Shown: positions 29,273 to 51,376 of the stretch, one piece after another
Numbering within the stretch: the stretch's first letter is position 1
Layout: the number at the start of each line of letters is the position of its first letter
Assembly (NCBI GenBank): GCA_902780585.1
Contig: CACZGA010000019.1
Span: forward strand, 1-55,489
Reading direction: 5' to 3'
Length of the DNA stretch: 55,489 bases
Source of the DNA: an uncultured Erysipelotrichaceae bacterium
GTDB taxonomy: Bacteria > Bacillota_I > Bacilli_A > RF39 > UBA660
The notes under the pieces: generated by a model
Told to the model about the DNA's origin: nothing
Seen by the model: the letters and a program-made list of their open reading frames with translations, nothing else
Databases searched by the model: none
Position numbers and translations under genes: made by a program

Positions 29273-29287
29273 CACCTTGTTTTTTTA
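29251..29287. terminator. Bidirectional terminator
   Basis: ACAAGGT/ACCTTGT hairpin with T-runs on both strands, overlapping the end of the second FemAB gene and the end of WXG locus 1. Confidence 0.75.
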
Positions 29288-29596
29288 ACTTGGAATTTGT
29301 TTTGATGCTTTAGCATCTGAAGCTTTATAATTAGCAACAGTTCTTTGAATTAAATCATCCATTTCCTCCATTTTAGCAACAAACCCATCATATTGAGCAG
29401 AAATATTTTTATACTCAGCATGAGCATCTTCAGAACCAGAACTTACCCAATGTTCCTTAAATAGAGCATTAGCCTCTTTTTCAATTGCATCAAATATATC
29501 CCTAATTGCATGTGCACATTCTCTTATTTTAGCACCATCACTACTAGCTTGATCATAATTTCCAATTTCACCTGGTTTAATAGTATTCACACCCAC
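29285..29596 (-). CDS. WXG100-like small helical protein (locus 1)
   Basis: 103 residues, starting at a GTG 7 bases after AGGAGG. Mostly alpha-helical, with a central turn HWVSSGSEDAH that resembles the W-x-G bend of ESAT-6/WXG100 proteins. It lacks the exact W-x-G triplet and has a hydrophilic helix on each side. WXG100-type proteins are substrates or adaptors of type VII secretion. It is the last gene of locus 1 and pairs with the preceding small gene. Confidence 0.65.
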   Translation of the reverse strand: MGVNTIKPGEIGNYDQASSDGAKIRECAHAIRDIFDAIEKEANALFKEHWVSSGSEDAHAEYKNISAQYDGFVAKMEEMDDLIQRTVANYKASDAKASKQIPS

Positions 29597-29607
29597 ATTA
29601 ACACCTC

Positions 29608-29922
29608 CTAACCCCAGTTTCCAAGATTACGCGCAGCGGCAGCGCTATCCTCTTCGTTATTAGCCATAATTGTACCTGCATTGCCAACCCCTATACCTAA
29701 ATCATCCAATAATCTTTGGAACCTATCAAAAACACTTTTAATTTCATCATAAGATGTATTATATTCAGTTGCAGAATCACCAGTCCAATTAGATCTTAAC
29801 GAGCTCATCAAACTTTCTAAAACATTTAAATTATGCAAAAAACCTTCAGCATTTTCTACTATTGAATCACTAGCATGATAGATTTCACCATAATCCCCAT
29901 GAAAACCAACGCCTGAACCCAT
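29608..29922 (-). CDS. WXG100-family protein (locus 1)
   Basis: 104 residues from the ATG at 29922. A GTG two codons earlier is possible; GGAG sits 10 bases before the ATG. It has a helix-turn-helix hairpin with the turn SNWTGDSATEYN (W-T-G), followed by a hydrophobic/charged heptad helix (YDEIKSVFDRFQRLLDDL). This matches the WXG100 fold of type VII secreted proteins. The first 12 residues are Gly-rich. A promoter-like sequence lies upstream in the gap before this gene, so the last two genes may be expressed separately. Confidence 0.72.
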   Translation of the reverse strand: MGSGVGFHGDYGEIYHASDSIVENAEGFLHNLNVLESLMSSLRSNWTGDSATEYNTSYDEIKSVFDRFQRLLDDLGIGVGNAGTIMANNEEDSAAAARNLGNWG

Positions 29923-29972
29923 AATCACTCATCTCCTATCCTAATAAAAATTTCTAATATCATTACAAATCA

Positions 29973-30001
29973 AGTATAATATGCTAGAGTCAAATTTACA
30001 A
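29973..30001 (-). promoter_or_regulatory. Putative internal promoter in WXG locus 1
   Basis: On the minus strand, TTGTAA (29996-30001), a 17-base spacer and TATACT (29973-29978), about 50 bases before the ATG of the 104-residue WXG100 gene. Confidence 0.45.
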
Positions 30002-30024
30002 TAGAGTTGTCAAAAGTTTACACA

Positions 30025-30315
30025 CTAAATATCCATGCTAGCAAACTCTTCCTCTAATTTTTGAATAGCATTAGCCGATTCAACTACATAATCCCCAATA
30101 GCTTTTAAATACTCAGCATCAGACTGAGACTGAACAGCTTGAGAATTTAAAGAACTACTAAAACTAGATTTTGCAGTTCCCTGAGACCAACCAGATAGAG
30201 TTGATTCAGCATCCTGAGCATAAGATGAAATCGTTTTAGTCATACTATCGGCATTTTGACGAATTTTTTCACCTGCATCTACTACTTTTTCATAATCACA
30301 AACAAACTTTGCCAT
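30025..30315 (-). CDS. WXG100-family protein (locus 1)
   Basis: 96 residues. The turn is LSGWSQGTAKSSF (W-S-Q-G, one residue longer than W-x-G), between a Lys/Ser-rich helix and a helix ending EEFASMDI. It is the size and fold expected of an ESAT-6/WXG100 protein, and the ending resembles the C-terminal YxxxD/E-type signal only loosely. The start codon overlaps the stop of the 411-residue gene (TAATG), so they are coupled. It is the third gene of locus 1. Confidence 0.75.
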   Translation of the reverse strand: MAKFVCDYEKVVDAGEKIRQNADSMTKTISSYAQDAESTLSGWSQGTAKSSFSSSLNSQAVQSQSDAEYLKAIGDYVVESANAIQKLEEEFASMDI

Positions 30316-31550
30316 TATATAATGGTACCCCCTTCATCCAATTTTTCTATACGATCATCAACAAAACTTGCATTTGAATTATCTGAAGCAGTTTCGTTTG
30401 ATGTATTTCCAACCACTTCACCAGTAGTTCCACTAGCATTCTGATTTAAAGATTCCTTTATAGTATCTGTCATACTAGCCACAGTACTTTTTTCAGTATT
30501 TGCAGTACCAGTAGATTCTCCATCCGTAGAAGTTTTTTCACCATTAGCATTATCTGTTGTATTTCCTTCCTGAGCAGAAGCATCAATTGTAGTACCAATT
30601 GTTCCATCAGTGCTTTTTTCTTCACCAGTTTCTTTTGAGACAGTACCTTTTTGAGGAGTAGTTCCATCACTAGTTTTTTCAACAGTACTCTTATCAGTAG
30701 ATGTCTCAGTACCAGATACTAATGCATCAGTCTTACTTACTTCTGCTATATTACCTCTATTTTTAACTTCTTTAACATTATTATATAAATTTTTATAATC
30801 ATCAATTGCTACTGGAGTTTTATTATTAGGATCCATAATAAACGTAATTGTATTCTTAGAATCTTTACTAGTTGTAGTTGTTGCAACAACAAATTCAACT
30901 ACACTACCATCTTCTTTAACAAACGATAAAACATCTCCAACATTAGCAATAGATTTATCACATGCAATTAAATAACGTGAACCGATCTTCAAGTACCCTT
31001 CTGAAGTGGCTTTACTTTCATTTAATAATTGAATCGTTGGTAAAGTCACTTGATCAGTAGCTAAATATGCACAAGCAGCTGTGCTAAGAAGAACAGATTC
31101 CCGATCTTTTGTAGGGTCAGTAACAAGGCCATCTGCAATAACAAAGTTATCAGCATTATAAGAGCCTCCGCCTCCGTAACTTCCGCCTCCGTAACTTCCG
31201 CCACCGCCGTAGCCACCTCCGCCATAACTTTCAAGACCTTTTCCACCAGACGCTTGACTTTGCATACGTGCTTTTTCAGCTGGAGACATAAACTCATTCT
31301 GTTGTAAAGCTGTATGTGAAGTTACTACTGCTTCCATATAACCAGAAGAATTACTAACTTTTGTTGCACAAGCCTCAATATTTTGAGCAATAACATCTCT
31401 TGCCCCAGCAAAATTAAAAGACTCCTCAGTATCAGTATCTACAACATAACTAGCTACTGCACCAGCTATATCATTTAATTGGGAACTAATAGATTTTGTA
31501 GAACCAGAACCTGTAGTTACTATCTCAGTATCTAAAACAAATAAAGCCAT
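30315..31550 (-). CDS. Large secreted-type protein with a Gly/Tyr repeat (locus 1)
   Basis: 411 residues, no signal peptide or membrane helix, starting MALFVLDTEIVTTG. Residues 1-95 are helical. Residues 109-131 are a Gly/Ser/Tyr repeat. Residues about 150-245 form a beta-rich domain (LKIGSRYLIACDKSI, NVGDVLSFVKEDGSVVEF) that reminds me of the double-psi beta-barrel domains found beside NlpC/P60 enzymes. The last 140 residues are a Ser/Thr/Asn/Glu-rich tail. It is placed between an NlpC/P60-type protein and a WXG100 protein, so export by the same WXG-dependent route is likely. Function unknown. Confidence 0.68.
   Translation of the reverse strand: MALFVLDTEIVTTGSGSTKSISSQLNDIAGAVASYVVDTDTEESFNFAGARDVIAQNIEACATKVSNSSGYMEAVVTSHTALQQNEFMSPAEKARMQSQASGGKGLESYGGGGYGGGGSYGGGSYGGGGSYNADNFVIADGLVTDPTKDRESVLLSTAACAYLATDQVTLPTIQLLNESKATSEGYLKIGSRYLIACDKSIANVGDVLSFVKEDGSVVEFVVATTTTSKDSKNTITFIMDPNNKTPVAIDDYKNLYNNVKEVKNRGNIAEVSKTDALVSGTETSTDKSTVEKTSDGTTPQKGTVSKETGEEKSTDGTIGTTIDASAQEGNTTDNANGEKTSTDGESTGTANTEKSTVASMTDTIKESLNQNASGTTGEVVGNTSNETASDNSNASFVDDRIEKLDEGGTII
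31158..31226 (-). repeat. Gly-Gly-Ser-Tyr coding repeat
   Basis: Encodes residues 109-131 of the 411-residue protein as repeats of GGGSYGGG type. The DNA repeats TCCGCCTCCGTAAC on the plus strand and is conspicuously GC-rich against the AT-rich surroundings. Confidence 0.8.
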
Positions 31551-31561
31551 AAACTCCCCTC

Positions 31562-32524
31562 CTAACCGCCAGTACTTTCTGAGTTAACATTTTTGTTGCC
31601 AACATAATGTAAAACACCATCCCAATGGTGACCAGAAGTCTTAATATTAATCTCTCTACCACTAGGATCTCCTACAGAACCACTATAATCAGAATGTGCC
31701 CCAACATTTAAATACTCTCCATTTGAACCCTTACCATAATACATCTCAGTATGAGAATCTTCATCCAAAAAAATATCCCCTGGATATATATACCTAACTT
31801 CACTCATAGGAATCCATTCAAACTGGCCTGACGCTAAAAAAGCCTTTTTCATATTATAAGTTGTATTAGCACCATACTTAGATCTAACAGGTACACCTGC
31901 AGCTTCATATGCTGCAATAACTAATGAAGAACAATCAAAGTCAGTTCCCCCAACAAATGAACGTCTAGGTTGTGAATAACCATGGCTATCATCATTAGCA
32001 ATATCTACTGCCCATGCCAATGCCGCTTTATTAGCATCCCCAGAAACAGCTGATCTAACAGCACTATTAATACTTTCAGCCAATCCATTTGGTATCTCAC
32101 TAGAAGCAGCATAAGAAATTGTAGAAGCAGATAATTTAGGAGAACTTGCTTCCTCTAAATAAGATTTTATTGAAGACCGCAAAGAATCAACTTGACTACT
32201 AAATGTTTCTACATGCTTATGATACATATTAGCCTTACTTGTATCATTACACCTAATTGCCTCTTGTTCATTAGACTTAGCATTTTTTAAATTATCCTTA
32301 GCAACTACAAAATTTGCATATGCATCTACTGCTGAGGCAAAAGCAGCCATTTGTTTTTTTATAGTTCCACCATATTCAGATGCAAAAGTCTCACCTTTAT
32401 TAACTAAATTATCATGAGAAAGACCTTTCCAACCACCAGAAGTATTACCAATTTCAGACTGATAGTTATTTAAACATTCCTGAAAAGAACTTAAATGTCC
32501 ATTTACCGTACCACTAGTTACCAT
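31562..32524 (-). CDS. WXG-type secreted peptidoglycan hydrolase (NlpC/P60-like)
   Basis: 320 residues. The N-terminus is a WXG hairpin (turn SGGWKGLSHDN, W32-K-G34), a long helical linker covers residues about 55-125, and the C-terminal 140 residues form a cysteine peptidase domain. Its catalytic Cys is in DFDCSSLVIAAYEAAG (Cys198). The His is in DSHTEMYYGKG (His258), with a further HHW near the end. It lacks a Sec signal, so export through the type VII pathway using the WXG head is likely. It probably cleaves muropeptides. It is the first gene of locus 1, with AAGGAAGG before its ATG. Confidence 0.82.
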   Translation of the reverse strand: MVTSGTVNGHLSSFQECLNNYQSEIGNTSGGWKGLSHDNLVNKGETFASEYGGTIKKQMAAFASAVDAYANFVVAKDNLKNAKSNEQEAIRCNDTSKANMYHKHVETFSSQVDSLRSSIKSYLEEASSPKLSASTISYAASSEIPNGLAESINSAVRSAVSGDANKAALAWAVDIANDDSHGYSQPRRSFVGGTDFDCSSLVIAAYEAAGVPVRSKYGANTTYNMKKAFLASGQFEWIPMSEVRYIYPGDIFLDEDSHTEMYYGKGSNGEYLNVGAHSDYSGSVGDPSGREINIKTSGHHWDGVLHYVGNKNVNSESTGG

Positions 32525-35330: not shown

Positions 35331-35362
35331 AGAAAAAGGGAATTATTTTACATTCCCTTATT
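35331..35362 (-). terminator. Terminator after leuS
   Basis: AAGGGAAT/ATTCCCTT hairpin overlapping the leuS stop codon, followed on the minus strand by TTTTT. Confidence 0.75.
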
Positions 35363-38165
35363 TTACCACAATATTAACTATTTTTCCTTTAATAACAATA
35401 ACTTTAACTATTTCTTTACCATCTATATGTTTAATAACATTTTCACATTCCATTGCTTTTTCTTTAATAGCTTGTTCATCATCATCAACATGAATTGTAA
35501 TTGTACCACGTACTTTACCATTAACTTGAACAGCAATTTCCTTAGTATCTTCAATAGTCTTTGCCTCATCATAGCTTGGCCAAGTACCCTCACAAATTGG
35601 AGAATATCCAATTTCTTCATTTAGCTCTTCAGTAATATGAGGTGCTATTGGATTTAATAATGTTAACAACAAACGGTAATCTTCTTTAGTAATAGAATCT
35701 AATTCATCATAAGCATTAGCTAAAATCATTAAACTTGATATTGCCGTATTATAACCCATATGAGTCATATCATACTCAATCTTCTTAATAGTTTTATTTT
35801 GAATTAACTCTAATGATTGCGTAAATCCTTCATTATTATTTACCTTATCTTTTAATCTTTCAACCTTTTCTAGGAATCTCTTACATCCCCTTAAAGTATC
35901 AATACTCCATGCAACATCCATTTGATAGTCACCCATGAACATTTCATATGTACGTAAAGTATCTGCTCCATATTCTTTAACTATATCATCTGGATTAATA
36001 ACATTTCCTTTAGATTTACTCATCTTTTGGCCATCTGGGCCTAAAACCATACCATGAGATACTCTAGTCCAAATCATTTCTTTATTTGGCACTAAACCAA
36101 TATTATATAAGAATTGTACCCAGAAACGAGCATATAACAAGTGTCTAGCTGTATGTTCCATACCACCATTGTACCAATCTACTCTATTCCAATACTTCAT
36201 AGCATCCATAGAAGCAAATTCGTTTGTATTATGAGGATCCATAAAACGTAAGAAATACCAAGAAGATCCAGCCCAGTTAGGCATTGTATCAGTTTCTCTT
36301 CTAGCATGTCCCCCACATTTAGGACAAGTAGTATTTACCCAATCCTCAATCTTAGCTAATGGACTTTCTCCTGTATCAGTAGGTTCATATTCCGCAACAT
36401 CTGGTAACAATAATGGCAAATCTTCTTCCTTCATAGGTTGCCATCCACACTTTTCACAATAAATCATTGGAATAGGCTCTCCCCAGAATCTTTGGCGTGA
36501 GAAAATCCAATCTCTCATTTTATAATTAACTTTTTCGCCGCCACAATTATGCTCTTTTAAATAATTAATCATATAATTAATAGCTTCTTCTTTATTCATA
36601 CCATTAAGTGGCCCTGAATTAATATGAATACCATCTCCTACCATAGCACCAGGATTCATAGCATATTCATAAGTTCTATGATGAAGAGCATCTTTAACTT
36701 CATCAATTTGTTTACGAGATACCCATTCTACATCAAATATTTCATCATCATCCAAATGTTGAGGATTACGTTTATCAGACTTTAACTTGAAATAGAAACC
36801 AGTAGATTCAGTATTATAATACTTATCCTTAGAAAATGCATAATAATGATGGAAAATCTTAGGTAATTCACTAACAAACTCTAAGTCATAGTAACCAGTT
36901 TCTTCTTCTATTTCTCTTTTAGCACATTCAAGTGGATCTTCACCATCATGAATAGTACCACCAATAAAGCATCTGCCACCCTTATCATGCCAGTTAAGTG
37001 TTAAGAACTTATCTTCTTTTTCATCATATACAACTGCCACAATAGAAGTCTTATTTAACTCATTTTCATGAGGTTCACCAGAAACCTCTTCCAACACTTG
37101 AACAATTGGAATATTATACTTAACCGCAAAATCATAATCTCTTTGGTCATGTGCAGGTACAGCCATAATAGCACCAGTGCCATAAGTTGCTAAAACATAA
37201 TCACTTATATAAATAGGTATTTTTTCATTATTAACAGGATTAATTGCATAAGCTCCAGTAAACACACCAGTCTTATCTTTATTTAACTCTGTACGTTCCA
37301 TATCATTCTTAAATGAACATTCTTTTTGATATGCTTCTACTTCTGCTTTATGTTCTTCAGTAGTAATTTCATTAACATAAGGGTGTTCAGGTGACATTAC
37401 ACAATAAGTTGCTCCAAAAAGAGTATCACAACGCGTAGTAAATACTGTAAATTTCTTATCATGACCATCTATTTTAAAATCAACATGAGCTCCAGTAGAT
37501 TTACCAATCCAATTTATTTGTCCTAATTTTACTCTTTCAGCAAAATTAGTATCATCAAGTCCTTTTAATAAATCCTCAGAATAATCACTCATTCTAAGCA
37601 TCCATTGACTCTTTTCTTTTTGTTCTACTTGACTACCACATCTTTCACAAACCCCACCAGCAGCATCTTCATTAGATAAAACACTTTTACAAGTAGGGCA
37701 CCAGTTTACTGGAATAGTATCTTTATAAGCCATACCATGCTTATAAAATTGTAAAAATTGCCATTGTGTCCACTTATAATACTCTGGATCAGTAGTTGAA
37801 AACTCACGAGACCAATCAAATGAAAAACCTAATGTTTTCATTTGAGCTTTAAAAGTCTTAATATTTTCTTCAACAGCCTCTTTTGGATGAATATGATTCT
37901 TAATAGCATATTGCTCAGCAGGAGCCCCAAAAGCATCCCAACCCATTGGATATAAAATATTATATCCTTGCATTCTCATCATTCTAGCAATTGCATCTTG
38001 TGCTGTATAACTTCTTACATGCCCAACATGTAATCCGGATCCACTTGGATAAGGAAATTCTACCAAGATATAGTAAGGGTCCTTTTCTCCCCCATTCTTT
38101 GCCACAAAAGTCTTGTGTTTATCCCAATACTTTTGCCATTTCTTTTCTATTTCTTTATGATTCAT
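35358..38165 (-). CDS. leuS: Leucyl-tRNA synthetase with an inserted Nudix domain
   Basis: 935 residues, class I synthetase. HIGH motif PYPSGSGLHVGHV (residues 38-50), zinc-type knuckles (CPTC...CERC), CP1 editing elements (TTRCDTLFGATY, GTGAIMAVPAHDQRDYDFA), and KMSKSKGNVINP (714-725). Between the editing block ending near residue 358 and GDGIHINSGPLNGM (about 511-524) lies an extra block with a perfect Nudix box: Gly403, Glu409, Arg417-Glu418, Glu421-Glu422 and Gly424 (GGTIHDGEDPL, REIEEETGYYD). LeuRS normally has no such hydrolase. The gene is 4 bases downstream-overlapping a small membrane protein gene, in a Leu T-box operon. Confidence 0.96.
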   Translation of the reverse strand: MNHKEIEKKWQKYWDKHKTFVAKNGGEKDPYYILVEFPYPSGSGLHVGHVRSYTAQDAIARMMRMQGYNILYPMGWDAFGAPAEQYAIKNHIHPKEAVEENIKTFKAQMKTLGFSFDWSREFSTTDPEYYKWTQWQFLQFYKHGMAYKDTIPVNWCPTCKSVLSNEDAAGGVCERCGSQVEQKEKSQWMLRMSDYSEDLLKGLDDTNFAERVKLGQINWIGKSTGAHVDFKIDGHDKKFTVFTTRCDTLFGATYCVMSPEHPYVNEITTEEHKAEVEAYQKECSFKNDMERTELNKDKTGVFTGAYAINPVNNEKIPIYISDYVLATYGTGAIMAVPAHDQRDYDFAVKYNIPIVQVLEEVSGEPHENELNKTSIVAVVYDEKEDKFLTLNWHDKGGRCFIGGTIHDGEDPLECAKREIEEETGYYDLEFVSELPKIFHHYYAFSKDKYYNTESTGFYFKLKSDKRNPQHLDDDEIFDVEWVSRKQIDEVKDALHHRTYEYAMNPGAMVGDGIHINSGPLNGMNKEEAINYMINYLKEHNCGGEKVNYKMRDWIFSRQRFWGEPIPMIYCEKCGWQPMKEEDLPLLLPDVAEYEPTDTGESPLAKIEDWVNTTCPKCGGHARRETDTMPNWAGSSWYFLRFMDPHNTNEFASMDAMKYWNRVDWYNGGMEHTARHLLYARFWVQFLYNIGLVPNKEMIWTRVSHGMVLGPDGQKMSKSKGNVINPDDIVKEYGADTLRTYEMFMGDYQMDVAWSIDTLRGCKRFLEKVERLKDKVNNNEGFTQSLELIQNKTIKKIEYDMTHMGYNTAISSLMILANAYDELDSITKEDYRLLLTLLNPIAPHITEELNEEIGYSPICEGTWPSYDEAKTIEDTKEIAVQVNGKVRGTITIHVDDDEQAIKEKAMECENVIKHIDGKEIVKVIVIKGKIVNIVVK

Positions 38166-44287: not shown

Positions 44288-45073
44288 ATGTTGAAATTCA
44301 ATAATAAAGAAAAAAGAATTCTTTCTGTTATATTAGCCAGTTGGGGCATTTTTTTAGTAATAAGTGGTCTTATTATGAATAATCAACACAAAACAATTAT
44401 AAACACCAAGTATAAAGTTAATATAAATAAAAAGAAAATAGCCGAGCAACAAGCTAAAACAAATGAAATTAAACTAAAAGATCTTGAAATAGAAATTAAT
44501 ACTCCTCTAAGCGTAAACGTCAAAGACTACTTAGATGATATTGATAAAATTAGTGAAAGCACTCTAAAAAGTTTAAAATTAGATACATCTCTAGTTAATA
44601 TTAATCAAGCAGGATCTTATCAATATAGAATAACCTATAAAAAGAAAATATATGTAGGAAGTATAAAAGTAAAAGAAAAAGAGTTACCAAATGTAACCTT
44701 TACATTAAAAACAATAGAGATTACAACCTTTAAAGAAGGAGAAGCTCTATCTGCAAATCCAAGAGATTATATAGAAGAAGACATACCTGATGAAGTATAC
44801 AATAACTTAACATTAGATATTTCACAGGTAACACCTACTATTCAAGGCGACTATACATATTATATTATTTATAAAGGTATTACCTACCAAGGGAAAATAG
44901 AAGTAAGGAATCCCGGTCCAACAATAAAAACACCAAATAGTGATACAACCCAGAACGACAACACAACAGCAGAAACAACTTGTCCAAAAGATTCAACCAA
45001 AAAAGATAACACTTGTGTATGTCAAAATAATAAAACATATGACCCAATTACAAATACTTGTATAGAACAATAA
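44288..45073 (+). CDS. Membrane-anchored surface protein with two Ig-like repeats and a Cys tail
   Basis: 261 residues. N-terminal signal anchor (SVILASWGIFLVISGLIM). Two tandem repeats of about 80 residues each end in a similar strand pattern (YRITYKKKIYVGSIKV and YYIIYKGITYQGKIEV), as in bacterial Ig-like or MucBP-type modules. A Thr/Asn/Pro linker leads to a 30-residue tail with four Cys (CPKDSTKKDNTCVC, then a last C near the end), suggesting one or two disulphides outside the cell. Unknown binding role. Single-gene unit between two terminators. Confidence 0.7.
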   Translation: MLKFNNKEKRILSVILASWGIFLVISGLIMNNQHKTIINTKYKVNINKKKIAEQQAKTNEIKLKDLEIEINTPLSVNVKDYLDDIDKISESTLKSLKLDTSLVNINQAGSYQYRITYKKKIYVGSIKVKEKELPNVTFTLKTIEITTFKEGEALSANPRDYIEEDIPDEVYNNLTLDISQVTPTIQGDYTYYIIYKGITYQGKIEVRNPGPTIKTPNSDTTQNDNTTAETTCPKDSTKKDNTCVCQNNKTYDPITNTCIEQ

Positions 45074-45099
45074 AGAGCATTACAAAATGCTCTTTTTTA
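45071..45099. terminator. Bidirectional terminator
   Basis: AAAGAGCAT/ATGCTCTTT hairpin with a plus-strand T-run after the 261-residue gene; the reverse direction would end WXG locus 2. Confidence 0.75.
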
Positions 45100-45126
45100 A
45101 TACTTAATAAACTTTAAAACAGTCTT

Positions 45127-45438
45127 CTAAGGAATGTTAGTTGATAAAGTATCTGCTAATTCTTCTTGGTATGTTGAGATAGTTTGCTCACTATCAGAAA
45201 CCTTTGAATTTAAATCCCTCATAAGGTCTGTAATTTCCTTATTACGAGTCTCTACTGCAGTCGCACGTAACTTCAATGCTCTACTTAAAACATCGTTAAC
45301 TACACTATAATTAGAAATCTCTACCAACAAATCATGAACTTCTGTTCCTGAAGAAACTAAAGGTTTTAAAAAAACATCTTCCACATACTTAACAGTGCTG
45401 TTCATGGTTTGTGTTGATACATTTTTATTTTCAGCCAT
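45127..45438 (-). CDS. WXG-like small helical protein (locus 2)
   Basis: 103 residues from the ATG at 45438 (AAAGGG about 9 bases upstream), opening MAENKNVSTQTM. Two long helices predicted from heptads (VEDVFLKPLVSSGTEVHDLL and RALKLRATAVETRNKEITDL). No W-x-G bend is obvious, so the type VII assignment rests on size, helical hairpin character and position as the last gene of locus 2. It lies 15 bases after the WXG-like gene upstream and is coupled to it. Confidence 0.55.
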   Translation of the reverse strand: MAENKNVSTQTMNSTVKYVEDVFLKPLVSSGTEVHDLLVEISNYSVVNDVLSRALKLRATAVETRNKEITDLMRDLNSKVSDSEQTISTYQEELADTLSTNIP

Positions 45439-45453
45439 ACAAATCACCCTTTC

Positions 45454-45777
45454 CTATGCTTGATCAATTTTTTCTAATATGTCAATTGCATCATACAAAG
45501 CTTGAATATTACTATCAATTGCCATAATATAATCATTATAATTATTATTTGCGTAATCAGTTAGTTGTCTTACAGCATCCTTTCCATTAGTAGTAGTCCA
45601 CCTTGGTTTTAAAACTGTAGTAATATGATTTAATAGATCTTCTTGTCCTCTTATGTTTGCCTTTTTTTCATCTTCAATTTGCCTTACTTGTTCTCTTAAC
45701 CTAGCAGTATCAAAAGATAATCCACCATCGACATCAACATTTGAACTTCCTGGTATATTAAAAGCCATATTTCCCAT
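45454..45777 (-). CDS. WXG100-like protein (locus 2)
   Basis: 107 residues from the ATG at 45777 (GGAGG 7 bases upstream). A helix with DTARLREQVRQIEDEKKANI precedes a turn KPRWTTTNGKDAVRQL, which carries the Trp of a W-x-G-type bend, and a second helix ends DAIDILEKIDQA. The size and hairpin layout match WXG100 proteins. It follows a 98-base gap containing a promoter-like element, as in locus 1. Confidence 0.65.
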   Translation of the reverse strand: MGNMAFNIPGSSNVDVDGGLSFDTARLREQVRQIEDEKKANIRGQEDLLNHITTVLKPRWTTTNGKDAVRQLTDYANNNYNDYIMAIDSNIQALYDAIDILEKIDQA

Positions 45778-45804
45778 AATCAATCCTCCTTATAGTACAA
45801 AATA

Positions 45805-45834
45805 ATTATACAATAACAATTATTTGTGAAACAA
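45805..45834 (-). promoter_or_regulatory. Putative internal promoter in WXG locus 2
   Basis: On the minus strand, TTGTTT (45829-45834), an 18-base spacer and TATAAT (45805-45810), about 27 bases before the ATG of the WXG100-like gene. Confidence 0.5.
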
Positions 45835-45875
45835 TATAATTCATTATATTTGACATTATTTTACAAATTGGAAGT

Positions 45876-47108
45876 TTAACCTTCCCATTCTTTCTCTTCT
45901 TTTTCCTCTTTATCTCTATCATGTTTTTCTTTAACAGAAACACCAACGCCAGTTAATACAGCTGCCCCCACTGCAGGAATTGTATAATTAGCAATTTTTT
46001 CTTTAGTCACAGTATTTGCAACCTCACGAGACTCTGCATACGCAACATTAGCAAAAGGTACTTCTGTAAATTCTTCATTATCAAAGCTAGCAATAACTGC
46101 CGGAGCCCCAGAAATTGGACCATTATTATTACTTTGACTATTATTACTACTAGCCTTCCCAGAATTTAAAGACAAGATTTCAATCTGTTCACTATCAGAT
46201 TTATCATCTGATAATGTTTCAATCCTATTGGCCTTTTTACTATCACGATTGACATCTTTATAAACAGAATCTTCTTTAAAATTACTTTCAATCTCCGTAG
46301 TTGGAACTTCTTTAATCTCAGTTCTAACACTCTTATTTTCATTCTCTTTAGATGGTTTCTTAGAAATATCAGATGCCAAAGGCTTAGTGACACTAAGATT
46401 CGTCATAACAGAACTATCAGTTTCCTTCACATGTTTTTTTTCATCTTCATCCCCCGAACCATTTTCTAGGGGCTTATTCCAAACAACAGGTATTTCATCA
46501 TTTTCTTGCGCAACAGCATCCTCATTTTTTTCTAAATCAATCTTAGTAGGATTCTCCCAATCAGGAATAAGTTTTTCAACAGGAGCATCCAAATCTGGGG
46601 GAGGGAGTATAGGAATAGGGGTCTGTTTTTCAACAGACGTGTCATTATCTGCTGGTGGAAGTAAAGGTGCATTATCTACAGTAAGCGAACCATCCTCCAA
46701 AATATCAATTATTTCATCATAATAATTTTCAATGTTGTCTAATTTCCCCAAGGCATAATCTAACGCTCTATTCAAATATCCTAATTCTGCAACATAGTTA
46801 TTATATACATATTTAATGCCACTTGAAACATCATTATTATAATAGTGATTCATAAAATCAGGCTTACAAGTTATATTAACTTTATATATAGTAGTAACTG
46901 TAGATTTTGTGTTGTCACCATTTACAACTATTTCCTCTGTTCTACCTATTTCTGTATTATTATATTGCTTCAATTCTTCACACTCATTATACAAAACACC
47001 ACAATTACTCTCAAAAGACTTTAATGCTTCTGCAAGAGGTTTCACACACTCTTTAATCATTCCAACTGTACTTCTAATACCATCAGTATCTATTTTCTTT
47101 TCAGCCAT
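45876..47108 (-). CDS. Large WXG-type protein with proline-rich linker and C-terminal hydrophobic segment (locus 2)
   Basis: 410 residues starting MAEKKIDTDGIRSTVG, with GAGGTG 7 bases before the ATG. An N-terminal helical region (about 1-150, with Cys at CVKPL, NCGV, NECEEL) is followed by a Pro/Asp-rich linker (APLLPPADND, PILPPPDLDAP), then a long Ser/Asn/Glu-rich charged stretch. The C-terminus has a hydrophobic helix (IPAVGAAVLTGVGVSV) followed by an acidic/basic tail (DRDKEEKEEKEWEG). Probably a membrane-anchored or pore-forming type VII-linked protein. Function unknown. It overlaps the upstream gene by 8 bases. Confidence 0.6.
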   Translation of the reverse strand: MAEKKIDTDGIRSTVGMIKECVKPLAEALKSFESNCGVLYNECEELKQYNNTEIGRTEEIVVNGDNTKSTVTTIYKVNITCKPDFMNHYYNNDVSSGIKYVYNNYVAELGYLNRALDYALGKLDNIENYYDEIIDILEDGSLTVDNAPLLPPADNDTSVEKQTPIPILPPPDLDAPVEKLIPDWENPTKIDLEKNEDAVAQENDEIPVVWNKPLENGSGDEDEKKHVKETDSSVMTNLSVTKPLASDISKKPSKENENKSVRTEIKEVPTTEIESNFKEDSVYKDVNRDSKKANRIETLSDDKSDSEQIEILSLNSGKASSNNSQSNNNGPISGAPAVIASFDNEEFTEVPFANVAYAESREVANTVTKEKIANYTIPAVGAAVLTGVGVSVKEKHDRDKEEKEEKEWEG

Positions 47109-47445
47109 TTTTATTCACCTCATGCGTTTCTGTAGTACCATATTTTAATCTCGATCTATTATAATTATACAAATTATTTTTCATAGCAGTCTCAAATCTC
47201 TGTAACTCTTTATAGCAAGATAAAAGTTTATTATACACTTCTACACCACCATCAGTATCCCAATGATTTTTCAAAGAATCAATTGCAGCTTTCAAATCTT
47301 TCCCACTGGCACAAGTAAACTTATCTATCTCAGCACCATAAGAAAGATTACTCATATTCGTATTAAATGTTTCCACTCTTTTTTTTAATTCATTTTCCAA
47401 TTCTTTATTGTATTCCTCATATGTTATATTATGAAATATAGACAA
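47101..47445 (-). CDS. WXG100-like protein (locus 2)
   Basis: 114 residues from the TTG at 47445 (GGAG 7 bases upstream); a GTG three codons earlier is less well placed. It opens MSIFHNITYEEYN. The central turn SLKNHWDTDGGVEVYN carries W-x3-G. Helices flank the turn, and two Cys are in the protein (FTCASG and LLSCYKE). It is the first gene of locus 2 and is coupled to the 410-residue gene by an 8-base overlap. Confidence 0.62.
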   Translation of the reverse strand: MSIFHNITYEEYNKELENELKKRVETFNTNMSNLSYGAEIDKFTCASGKDLKAAIDSLKNHWDTDGGVEVYNKLLSCYKELQRFETAMKNNLYNYNRSRLKYGTTETHEVNKNG

Positions 47446-47611
47446 AAAAATCACTCCTAACCAAAATAAATAATACCCTCTAGCAATATAACCACTACTA
47501 TAATAAATATTTACAAATACAATATATCAAAAGAAAAGGGAAAAAGCCATATCTATTAATAAACATGATAGATTCTAAATTAGATATACCACAAATTTTA
47601 CTATTTCCAAC

Positions 47612-47640
47612 AAAAAAATTTGACAGCTATGGCTGTCAAA
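47612..47640 (-). terminator. Terminator after fhs
   Basis: Perfect TTTGACAGC-CATA-GCTGTCAAA type stem on the minus strand, followed by TTTTTTTG. The remaining 150 bases up to locus 2 are AT-rich with no other clear element. Confidence 0.85.
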
Positions 47641-47675
47641 TAACAGAAACAAATTACAAATAGTTGTAGATTTAT

Positions 47676-49430: not shown

Positions 49431-49459
49431 TTGTCATAACAAATAAACCATGATAGTAT
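49431..49459 (+). promoter_or_regulatory. Putative promoter of the adhesin-sortase pair
   Basis: TTGTCA (49431-49436), a 17-base spacer and TAGTAT (49454-49459). The -10 box overlaps the first in-frame ATG (49458-49460) of the adhesin gene, so that ATG is probably not in the mRNA. Confidence 0.55.
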
Positions 49460-50900
49460 GAGTCCCATTAAGAAAAAAGGAGGGATTATTATAAAAAACA
49501 AAATATTTTTCTTAATACTATTATCTTGCTTATTACTACCAACAATAAAAGTAAAAGCAGAAACCACAACATTTTATGAAGCAGAGTATATTGATAATAT
49601 TTATATGACTAAGTATAACTTTAACACCACAGCTAAATATTATCAAAAAGCTAGATTCTTTAGAAAAACAGGTACTAATGAATTTGCTTACTGTATAGAG
49701 CCATTCAAATTCTTCGAGGAAACATCACCATATCAATCAACAGATAGACCCAATTTAACCCAATCACAATTAGAAAGAATAACTAAACTAGCCTATTTTG
49801 GCTATGGTTACCAGAATCATACAGACCCAAAATGGTACGCTATAACTCAATTAATGATATGGCAAGCATCAGATTATTCAGGAAACTACTATTTTACAGA
49901 TACATTAAATGGTCAAGCTGTAAATAGATTCCTAGAAGAAATGAATGAAATAAACATCTTAGTAGAAAACTCAAATAAAATACCCAGTTTTTCTAATCAA
50001 AAATTCCTAATAATTGAAAATAGCTCCCTATTATTACAAGATCAAAATCAAGTATTAAATAATTTTCAATCTAATAATTTAATAATTAATAATAATACAA
50101 TTAATATAGAAAATCTAAAAGAAGGAGAATACTCATTTAACTTAACAAAAAAATTAGATAACTATCATAAACCTTTATTATTTTATCAATCAAATAATAG
50201 TCAAGATTTAGTAATAACTGGAGACTTAAAAGAAATAAACACTTCATTCCAAGTAAAAGTAATAAAAACAAAAATACAAGTAACTAAAATAGATAAAGAT
50301 ACTCAATCTATTATACCTTCAGGTAATGCCATCTTAGATGGTGCCATATATGAACTATATGATAGTAATAATAATAAAATTAAAGAATTAGAAATAAAAG
50401 GCAATCAATTCTCCATAGAAAATATACCTCTAGGAACATATTATTTAAAAGAAATAAAAGCGGGAACTGGCTATACTATAGATAATACTATTCATAAAGT
50501 AGAAATCACTGAAGAAAAACCTATAATAGATATAATATTAGAAAATGAAGTAATAAAGAAAAAACTAATCATTCAAAAAAAATATGGTGAAGAAAACAAT
50601 CTATTAAATGAACAAGATATTACATTTCAAATAATTAATATAAACAATAATGAAATAAAAAGAATAACTACAAATGAATTAGGTATTGCTGAAATTATAC
50701 TACCCTATGGAGAATATTCAATTATCCAAGAAAACTCAACAGAAGGCTACCAAAAGATAGATTCTATAACACTAAAAATAGAAAACTCTGAAGAAGAATT
50801 AATAGAATTAAAAGATTTAAAAATTCCTGTTCCTAATACTCATATAAATAAACATAGCCTATTAGATATAATTATATTAATATTATGTATACTATTATAA
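49458..50900 (+). CDS. Thioester-domain surface adhesin with SpaA-type repeats and a sorting signal
   Basis: Up to 480 residues. A signal peptide (KIFFLILLSCLLLPTIKVKA) precedes a thioester domain: Cys79 in FAYCIEPFK and Gln131 in YAITQLMIWQASDY should form the internal Cys-Gln bond used to attach covalently to host or surface targets. Two SpaA/Cna-B-like domains follow (LGTYYLKEIKAGTGY in the first). The end reads VPNTH, a hydrophobic stretch (LLDIIILILCILL) and no basic tail. The annotated ATG at 49458 lacks a ribosome site. A GGAGGG at 49479 lies 6 bases before ATA (49491), which may be the true start. Confidence 0.85.
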   Translation: MSPIKKKGGIIIKNKIFFLILLSCLLLPTIKVKAETTTFYEAEYIDNIYMTKYNFNTTAKYYQKARFFRKTGTNEFAYCIEPFKFFEETSPYQSTDRPNLTQSQLERITKLAYFGYGYQNHTDPKWYAITQLMIWQASDYSGNYYFTDTLNGQAVNRFLEEMNEINILVENSNKIPSFSNQKFLIIENSSLLLQDQNQVLNNFQSNNLIINNNTINIENLKEGEYSFNLTKKLDNYHKPLLFYQSNNSQDLVITGDLKEINTSFQVKVIKTKIQVTKIDKDTQSIIPSGNAILDGAIYELYDSNNNKIKELEIKGNQFSIENIPLGTYYLKEIKAGTGYTIDNTIHKVEITEEKPIIDIILENEVIKKKLIIQKKYGEENNLLNEQDITFQIININNNEIKRITTNELGIAEIILPYGEYSIIQENSTEGYQKIDSITLKIENSEEELIELKDLKIPVPNTHINKHSLLDIIILILCILL

Positions 50901-51376
50901 AAAAAGTATTAATACTAATAGTTACAATAATTCTATTATTAAACACCTCAGATCAAATAAAAGACTATTCTAACGAAACAAATAATATTGGTACTATTAT
51001 TATTAAAAAGATTAATTTAAACAGACATTTTTATCCTATAGATAGCGAAGAAAACACTATAGATAAGAATATAATGGTTTTAAAAGAATCAACAATGCCC
51101 GATATAGATAACAGTCTATTAATACTAGCGGCCCATTCTGGCACCGGAGATATAGCTTTCTTTGAAGAATTAGACAACTTATCAATTAATGACGAAGTAA
51201 TAATTATATATCAAAACAAAAAATATATCTATATAGTAAAAGATATATGGGAAGAGAAGAAAAATGGCTATATAAATTTAAACAAAGAAAAGAAAAAACA
51301 ACTAATATTAACAACTTGTAGTCCAAATAAAGATAATACTCAGCTCATAATTAATTGTATATTAAAAGAGTCCTAA
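50885..51376 (+). CDS. Sortase, dedicated to the upstream adhesin
   Basis: 163 residues. Signal anchor (LILIVTIILLLN), then the sortase barrel with the catalytic His in LILAAHSGTGDI (His84) and the Cys in LILTTCSPNKD (Cys145). The Arg that follows the Cys in sortases is missing: the tail reads NTQLIINCILKES. It is small for the family. It starts 16 bases inside the adhesin gene, without a separate ribosome site, so translation is coupled. It probably links the adhesin's VPNTH-type motif to the wall. Its stop overlaps the ctpA stop on the other strand by 4 bases. Confidence 0.8.
   Translation: MYTIIKKVLILIVTIILLLNTSDQIKDYSNETNNIGTIIIKKINLNRHFYPIDSEENTIDKNIMVLKESTMPDIDNSLLILAAHSGTGDIAFFEELDNLSINDEVIIIYQNKKYIYIVKDIWEEKKNGYINLNKEKKKQLILTTCSPNKDNTQLIINCILKES

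What the first reader, a model, noticed from the sequence alone, without database searches (positions are those of the whole stretch)
45127..47454. WXG100 locus 2 with a layout parallel to locus 1
Locus 2 also contains a protein of about 410 residues and ends in a pair of small helical genes after a gap of about 98 bases, like locus 1 (411 residues, gap of about 100 bases, then two small genes). Sequence similarity between the loci is low by eye. Two separate substrate modules sharing one logic suggest paralogous or exchangeable secretion cassettes.
Basis: seen in the sequence. Interest (0 to 1): 0.6.

Follow-up and report, generated by a model that had tools for sequence, protein, structure and literature searches.

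The report
Transplantable four-gene type VII secretion cassette
A self-contained four-gene unit in a gut Bacilli genome appears to encode two related pairs of helical secretion-partner proteins, one of them fused to a long cargo protein; it recurs as a unit in related genomes but sits here at a gene junction where relatives have nothing, so it looks like a movable cargo module for a type VII secretion system.

Summary
The four genes exist as described. They form one unit on the minus strand: C (114 aa), D (410 aa), a 98-base gap, A (107 aa), B (103 aa), bounded by two terminator-like hairpins. No gene passes a Pfam or NCBIfam WXG100 or LXG model. Family building shows that A, B, C and D are a conserved cassette, found at ten places including a likely second copy in this genome, elsewhere always in the order A-B-C-D. 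Profile comparison shows that A resembles C (93%) and B resembles the N-terminus of D (94%). The cassette is therefore two duplicated Esx-like pairs, one fused to a variable passenger; here the pair order is swapped. In three relatives it lies directly downstream of essC-yukD. In this genome it fills a junction that is 9-33 bases long in most relatives. Locus 1 is a different conserved five-gene module; the 410/411 match and equal gaps are coincidence. 'Exchangeable cassettes' holds; 'gene-for-gene parallel' does not. Most likely it is a type VII substrate module in which C escorts D and A-B act as an Esx pair. New variant of a known kind.

The parts
47101..47445 (-). gene C, 114 aa (TTG start), small helical protein with a central W-D-T-x-G-G turn; predicted dedicated partner of D
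   Evidence: family of 10; profile match to A (93%) and to WXG100 proteins (91%)
45876..47108 (-). gene D, 410 aa, overlaps C by 8 bases: helical N-terminal domain (about 1-145), 217-residue low-complexity linker, hydrophobic segment 372-390 rich in small residues, charged tail; predicted exported cargo
   Evidence: N-terminus matches B (94%) and WXG100 proteins (92%); relatives carry NlpC/P60 or CHAP domains instead of the linker and hydrophobic segment
45778..45875 (-). 98-base gap between the C-D pair and the A-B pair; no promoter-like site beyond chance
45454..45777 (-). gene A, 107 aa, small helical protein with conserved W-T-T-x-x-G turn
   Evidence: invariant W60 and near-invariant G65 in 10 relatives; profile match to C (93%) and to WXG100 proteins (66%)
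45127..45438 (-). gene B, 103 aa, small helical protein without the Trp turn; predicted partner of A
   Evidence: family of 10; profile match to D N-terminus over its whole length (94%)
47618..47641 (-). terminator-like hairpin between the upstream FTHFS gene and gene C
   Evidence: 3 found in region, 0.6 expected
45072..45095 (-). terminator-like hairpin after gene B; sits where relatives have the hairpin between the two flanking genes
45074..47675 (.). extent of the insertion: 2602 bases between the stop codons of two convergent genes that are 9-33 bases apart in most relatives
29285..32524 (-). locus 1, for comparison: five-gene module 320-411-96-gap-104-103, conserved in the same order in four other genomes

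Best explanation
Locus 2 is a type VII secretion substrate module. It consists of two homologous Esx-like pairs, C+D and A+B. In each pair one member is a ~100-residue helical protein with a Trp turn (C, A) and the other is a partner helical domain without it (B, and the N-terminus of D). In D the partner domain has gained an insert and a C-terminal passenger. Proposed working: C binds the N-terminal domain of D in the cytoplasm and the pair forms a composite export signal; A-B is a dedicated EsxA/EsxB-like pair exported with it or priming the ATPase; an EssC-type ATPase (most likely the genus core EssC) pushes D out. In this genus D then stays attached to the membrane by its C-terminal hydrophobic segment, with the low-complexity linker crossing the wall. 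Shown: four conserved families, duplication of a pair, swapped pair order here, adjacency to essC-yukD in three relatives, insertion at a junction that is empty in most relatives, variable passenger. Inferred: pair formation, export, the identity of the ATPase, and surface anchoring.
For: Cassette A-B-C-D at nine other places including G000:C88. A~C 93% (E 2.5e-7) and B~D N-terminus 94% (E 1e-7), no shuffled profile scoring as high (0 of 25 each); A, C and D match a broad WXG100 profile. The cassette lies directly downstream of essC and yukD in G615, G750 and G128, in the place where G664 has a canonical WXG100 pair. The EssC proteins next to cassettes form a clade (support 100) that groups with the core EssC of this genus (support 97). 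D passengers in G128 are NlpC/P60 and CHAP peptidoglycan hydrolases, typical exported enzymes, and D has no N-terminal signal-like hydrophobic stretch. Published precedent: cargo with helical N-termini is exported together with small helical partners (PMC9600955; PMC11217815). Terminators at both ends; empty junction in relatives.
Against: No locus 2 protein passes a WXG100, LXG or Lap model. B itself does not match the WXG100 profile (2.4%). The [FY]xxx[DE] export-type motif is in helix 2 of 6 of 10 A proteins but is YANNN in this copy. In this genome the cassette is not next to an essC. The genome is a draft MAG (6.5% contamination estimate).
Confidence: 0.62

Rival explanations
1. D is a membrane-inserting antibacterial toxin of the glycine-zipper kind (as reported for TelE and EsxX), exported by the type VII system; A, B and C are its targeting partners.
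For: C-terminal hydrophobic segments of D relatives are rich in small residues with GxxxGxxxG-like spacing (e.g. GVIGGAGIG in G029, GAALGAGLG in G035). Glycine-zipper LXG toxins are established (PMC10434224; PMC12744356 abstract).
Against: The unit ends in a terminator right after B with no candidate immunity gene. The segment is a single stretch followed by a highly charged tail, as in an anchor. The window copy has only a weak small-residue ladder.
Confidence: 0.12
2. D is a type VII exported protein that a sortase attaches to the cell wall.
For: D relatives carry IPNTG (G029) or IPNTD (G035), and a cassette-like C-terminus in G499 has IPNTG, about 10 residues before the hydrophobic segment. 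Other surface proteins of these genomes end in VPDT or VPNT plus a hydrophobic tail. The genome encodes several sortases, one in the window.
Against: The window copy has VPFAN at that place, G026 IPTSD, the G499:C28 D protein IPTSP, and passengers in other genera lack the segment.
Confidence: 0.12
3. A and B are core secreted components of a second type VII machine, and D is part of that machine and not cargo.
For: A-B sit right after essC-yukD in three genomes, where core Esx pairs are found.
Against: 37 of 38 other genomes of the genus have an EssC while only three have the cassette. D has interchangeable enzymatic ends. The core EssC has its own short pair downstream.
Confidence: 0.1
4. The genes are unrelated coiled-coil proteins with no role in secretion; similarity reflects shared helical composition.
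For: The B profile hits amphipathic helical proteins such as apolipoprotein A-IV; single-sequence Pfam hits are all weak.
Against: Column-shuffled profiles of the same composition never reach the A-C or B-D scores; conserved gene order and essC adjacency; peptidoglycan hydrolase passengers.
Confidence: 0.04

Closest known systems
LXG effectors with Lap1/Lap2 partners (T7SSb; PMC9600955)
   Same: Variable C-terminal passenger on a helical N-terminal domain, encoded with two small helical partner genes that resemble WXG100 proteins
   Different: D does not match the LXG model and A-C do not match DUF3130/DUF3958-type models; here the partners form a duplicated pair and the effector domain itself is homologous to one of them (B)
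EsxA/EsxB (ESAT-6/CFP-10) heterodimers
   Same: Two adjacent ~100-aa helical genes, one with a Trp turn and one without; position next to essC-yukD in three relatives
   Different: No PF06013 match above cut-off; export motif not conserved in this copy; pair duplicated, with one member enlarged into a cargo protein
T7SSc-T7SSj variants (PMC11217815)
   Same: EssC with FHA domain plus YukD-like protein without EssB; substrates encoded beside small WXG100-related genes
   Different: Not matched to one subtype here; the published survey used RefSeq genomes, whereas this host group is known here from gut MAGs
Locus 1 of the same window
   Same: Compact module of long proteins with helical WXG100-superfamily N-termini and small partners, ending in a pair after a gap
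   Different: Five genes of different families; canonical WXG100 pair; an NlpC/P60-type protein in the module; no direct profile similarity gene for gene

Membership tests
WXG100 family (PF06013 / TIGR03930) | match to the curated model above cut-off | tested here: not met
   none of A, B, C, D nor their relatives
WXG100 family (PF06013 / TIGR03930) | about 100 residues with a W-x-G turn in the middle | tested here: inconclusive
   A and C have a central W-[TD]-[TS]-x-x-G or similar (A: W invariant, G near-invariant in 10); spacing differs from W-x-G; B lacks it
WXG100 superfamily | homology by profile-profile comparison | tested here: met
   C 91%, D N-terminus 92%, A 66% (suggestive) to a 41-sequence WXG100 profile, shuffled controls far lower; B 2.4%, not met
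WXG100 superfamily | C-terminal pattern HxxxD/ExxhxxxH (PMC3935865) | tested here: inconclusive
   not above chance in A, C, D, but also not above chance in 41 WXG100 proteins of these genomes (13 vs 12.7 expected)
WXG100 superfamily | helical hairpin fold | not testable with these tools
LXG effectors (PF04740) | N-terminal LXG domain | tested here: not met
   no LXG match in 12 D proteins
LXG effectors (PF04740) | polymorphic C-terminal domain | tested here: met
   NlpC/P60, CHAP, other or low-complexity ends on one N-terminal family
Lap1/Lap2 partners (DUF3130/TIGR04197, DUF3958) | family match and FxxxD motif in Lap1 | tested here: not met
   no family match for locus 2 proteins; [FY]xxx[DE] in 6 of 10 A proteins but not in this copy
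T7SSb machinery | EssC with FHA and FtsK domains, EsaB/YukD | tested here: met
   core EssC on C26 with FHA and two FtsK/SpoIIIE stretches; the 85-aa neighbour is called YukD-like by size and position only, Pfam gave no YukD match
T7SSb machinery | EssB/YukC | tested here: not met
   PF10140 absent from 11 genomes of this family, found in the B. subtilis control
Locus 1-type module | gene-for-gene homology to locus 1 | tested here: not met
   D vs 411 0.5%, A vs 104 0.4%, B vs 103 0.4%

The most novel reading that the evidence does not exclude
D is displayed on the cell surface by a type VII system: exported N-terminus first together with partner C, stopped by its C-terminal hydrophobic segment (and in some relatives handed to a sortase), so that a type VII machine without EssB installs anchored surface proteins and not only released toxins. 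The cassette evolved by duplicating an Esx pair and turning one copy into a cargo carrier.
Probability: 0.25. Interest if true: 0.68.

Novelty: new variant of a known kind. Interest (0 to 1): 0.5.

Why it matters
The N-terminal domain of the cargo is homologous to one member of the small pair, and its partner to the other member. This gives a concrete sequence case for how helical-pair secretion signals can turn into cargo-carrying proteins: duplicate an Esx pair, then fuse a passenger to one partner. It also adds a family of probable type VII cargo that current models miss, in EssB-lacking systems of gut Bacilli, so counts of type VII effectors in such genomes are likely too low. The insertion at a junction that is empty in most relatives shows that such modules can sit away from the machine genes, so looking only beside essC will overlook them.

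Tried and rejected
Single-sequence Pfam/NCBIfam searches gave nothing usable; only families built from relatives worked. A one-protein search of 59 relatives with D gave two weak hits; the one in G035 is the end of a D-like protein cut by a contig edge, the other (G028, E 0.009) lies in a polyprenyl synthase-like gene (by eye) and was dropped. Hits in G004, G741, G656, G612, G326 and G126 were part-length or in long unrelated frames, and those in G635 and G664 are ordinary WXG100 proteins; none was counted as a cassette. PDB profile search found only generic helical proteins. A promoter in the 98-base gap was considered and dropped: sites are at chance level. The idea that the second EssC (C14 type) serves locus 2 was suggested by co-occurrence, but the EssC tree places cassette-adjacent ATPases nearer the core EssC, so it is left open. 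The plasmid collection holds no relative of A and the phage collection none of D. A named-genome scan with A found no relative.

Full report
What is there. Locus 2 is four genes on the minus strand: C (47445-47101, 114 aa), D (47108-45876, 410 aa), a 98-base gap, A (45777-45454, 107 aa), B (45438-45127, 103 aa). C and D overlap by 8 bases and A and B are 15 bases apart. Terminator-like hairpins stand before C and after B (3 found in the region, 0.6 expected). No promoter-like site in the gap exceeds chance. No protein of the locus reaches a Pfam or NCBIfam cut-off, unlike locus 1, where two proteins pass the WXG100 model.

Relatives. The window lies in a 1.75-Mb draft genome (145 contigs). Named relatives of its core EssC come from uncultured gut Bacilli, largely rumen and other ruminant MAGs. 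Searches of 39 genomes of the genus with A and C found both genes together on G000:C88 and G035:C90, and A on G026:C3 and G029:C50. A family-wide profile search (386 genomes) added G495, G499, G615, G750 and G128. At all nine of these places the order is A-B-C-D, and HMMs from ten members recover each gene with E below 1e-14 (these are the training members, so the value measures family coherence and not discovery). Weak part-length hits in other genomes were not counted.

Two duplicated pairs. Profile-profile comparison gives A-C 93% and B-D(N-terminus) 94%, against 25 column-shuffled controls each that never come near (maximum score 13.1 vs 43.0; 11.6 vs 45.9). The crossed comparisons A-B, C-D, A-D and B-C are at or near noise level. 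Against a 41-sequence WXG100 profile: C 91%, D 92%, A 66%, B 2.4%. So the cassette is a duplicated pair: a small Trp-turn protein plus a partner, where in one copy the partner has become the front end of a long protein. The window differs from all others in having the pairs in the order C-D then A-B. One caveat on calibration: one reversed-profile control (D against reversed 103) reached 54%, so values near 50-60% should not be trusted; the 411-aa (62%) and A (66%) matches are therefore only suggestive.

Comparison with locus 1. Locus 1 is 320-411-96-gap-104-103 and is conserved in the same order in G004:C5, G029:C4, G035:C4 and G007:C7, in the last with an extra gene and directly beside an essC. 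Direct comparisons with locus 2 genes are at noise level. The 410/411 sizes and ~98/100 gaps do not hold in relatives of either module. The shared logic is real but general: long proteins with helical front ends plus small helical partners.

D. After its helical domain the window D has a 217-residue low-complexity linker, a hydrophobic segment at 372-390 and a charged tail. Most relatives in the genus, and G499, share this kind of end; three such ends have IPNTG or IPNTD before the segment. In G128 two D proteins carry NlpC/P60 or CHAP domains instead. The window D has no N-terminal signal-like stretch.

Machine. The genome has a core EssC (C26, with FHA and FtsK domains), an EssC whose counterparts are at 72-85% identity in nearly all genomes of the genus, and a second EssC (C14). 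EssB is absent from 11 genomes tested. In G615, G750 and G128 the cassette follows essC-yukD directly (G128 with two further genes between); these EssCs form a clade that groups with the core EssC (97 SH-aLRT, quick tree). G495 has an EssC of that clade as well. This favours the core EssC as the machine for locus 2, but linkage is missing in this genome. A locus 1-type gene 1.8 kb from a core essC in CAMZHD010000001 suggests both modules may use it.

Insertion. The genes on either side of locus 2 (FTHFS and a 261-aa convergent gene) are adjacent in relatives: of 19 genomes measured, 18 have 9-33 bases between the stop codons and G035 has 81, against 2602 in the window; three more (G003, G008, G060) appear adjacent in the gene lists. 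G026, whose FTHFS is 88% identical, has 23 bases there and its own cassette elsewhere. Gain here is simpler than loss in all others, but no repeats or integrase were found to mark the event, and a dedicated search for them was not made, so the means of movement is unknown.

Mechanism and limits. The steps shown are gene families, duplication, order swap, essC linkage in relatives, insertion and passenger variation. Partner binding, export and surface anchoring are inferred, by analogy with published partner-assisted export (PMC9600955, PMC11217815) and EsxA/EsxB. C88 belongs to a draft with an estimated 6.5% contamination, so the second copy in this genome is likely but not certain.

Noticed in passing
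L020 1-4451 (G000:C14): The second EssC gene is split by a frame change near position 540 (1303 aa plus a 179-aa continuation that reaches the contig end); intact relatives of 1516-1525 aa exist in other genomes.
   Followed up: partly
L019 8844-9533 and L132-L202: Downstream of the core essC and its YukD-like gene lies a conserved pair of very short genes (about 70 and 72 aa), one with a Trp turn, that weakly match the WXG100 profile: a miniature Esx pair.
   Followed up: partly
11 genomes of this family: No EssB/YukC gene was found although EssC and YukD-like genes are present, so these type VII systems are not standard T7SSb.
   Followed up: partly
window 29285-32524: Locus 1 is a five-gene module conserved in order in four other genomes; the 320-aa protein carries an NlpC/P60-like domain and the 411-type proteins have changing C-terminal parts.
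   Followed up: partly
window 35358-38165: Leucyl-tRNA synthetase seems to carry a NUDIX-like box (GGTIHDGEDPLECAKREIEEETGY) inside its middle region; read by eye only.
   Followed up: no
window 49458-51376: A surface protein with thioester and SpaA domains ending in VPNT plus a hydrophobic tail is followed by a sortase gene.
   Followed up: no
L021 5413-5995 (G000:C29): Another adjacent pair of small helical genes (98 and 94 aa), the second a weak WXG100 match, beside a VPDT-tailed surface protein.
   Followed up: no
L036 5943-7291 and L113 259-1423: A different gene pair (about 168 aa plus a longer protein with a small-residue hydrophobic segment) sits beside the cassette in G026 and near an essC in G028; maybe a second anchored cargo type.
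   Followed up: no
L216 (G018:C29): The same FTHFS junction that holds locus 2 in the window holds a transposase pair in G018.
   Followed up: no
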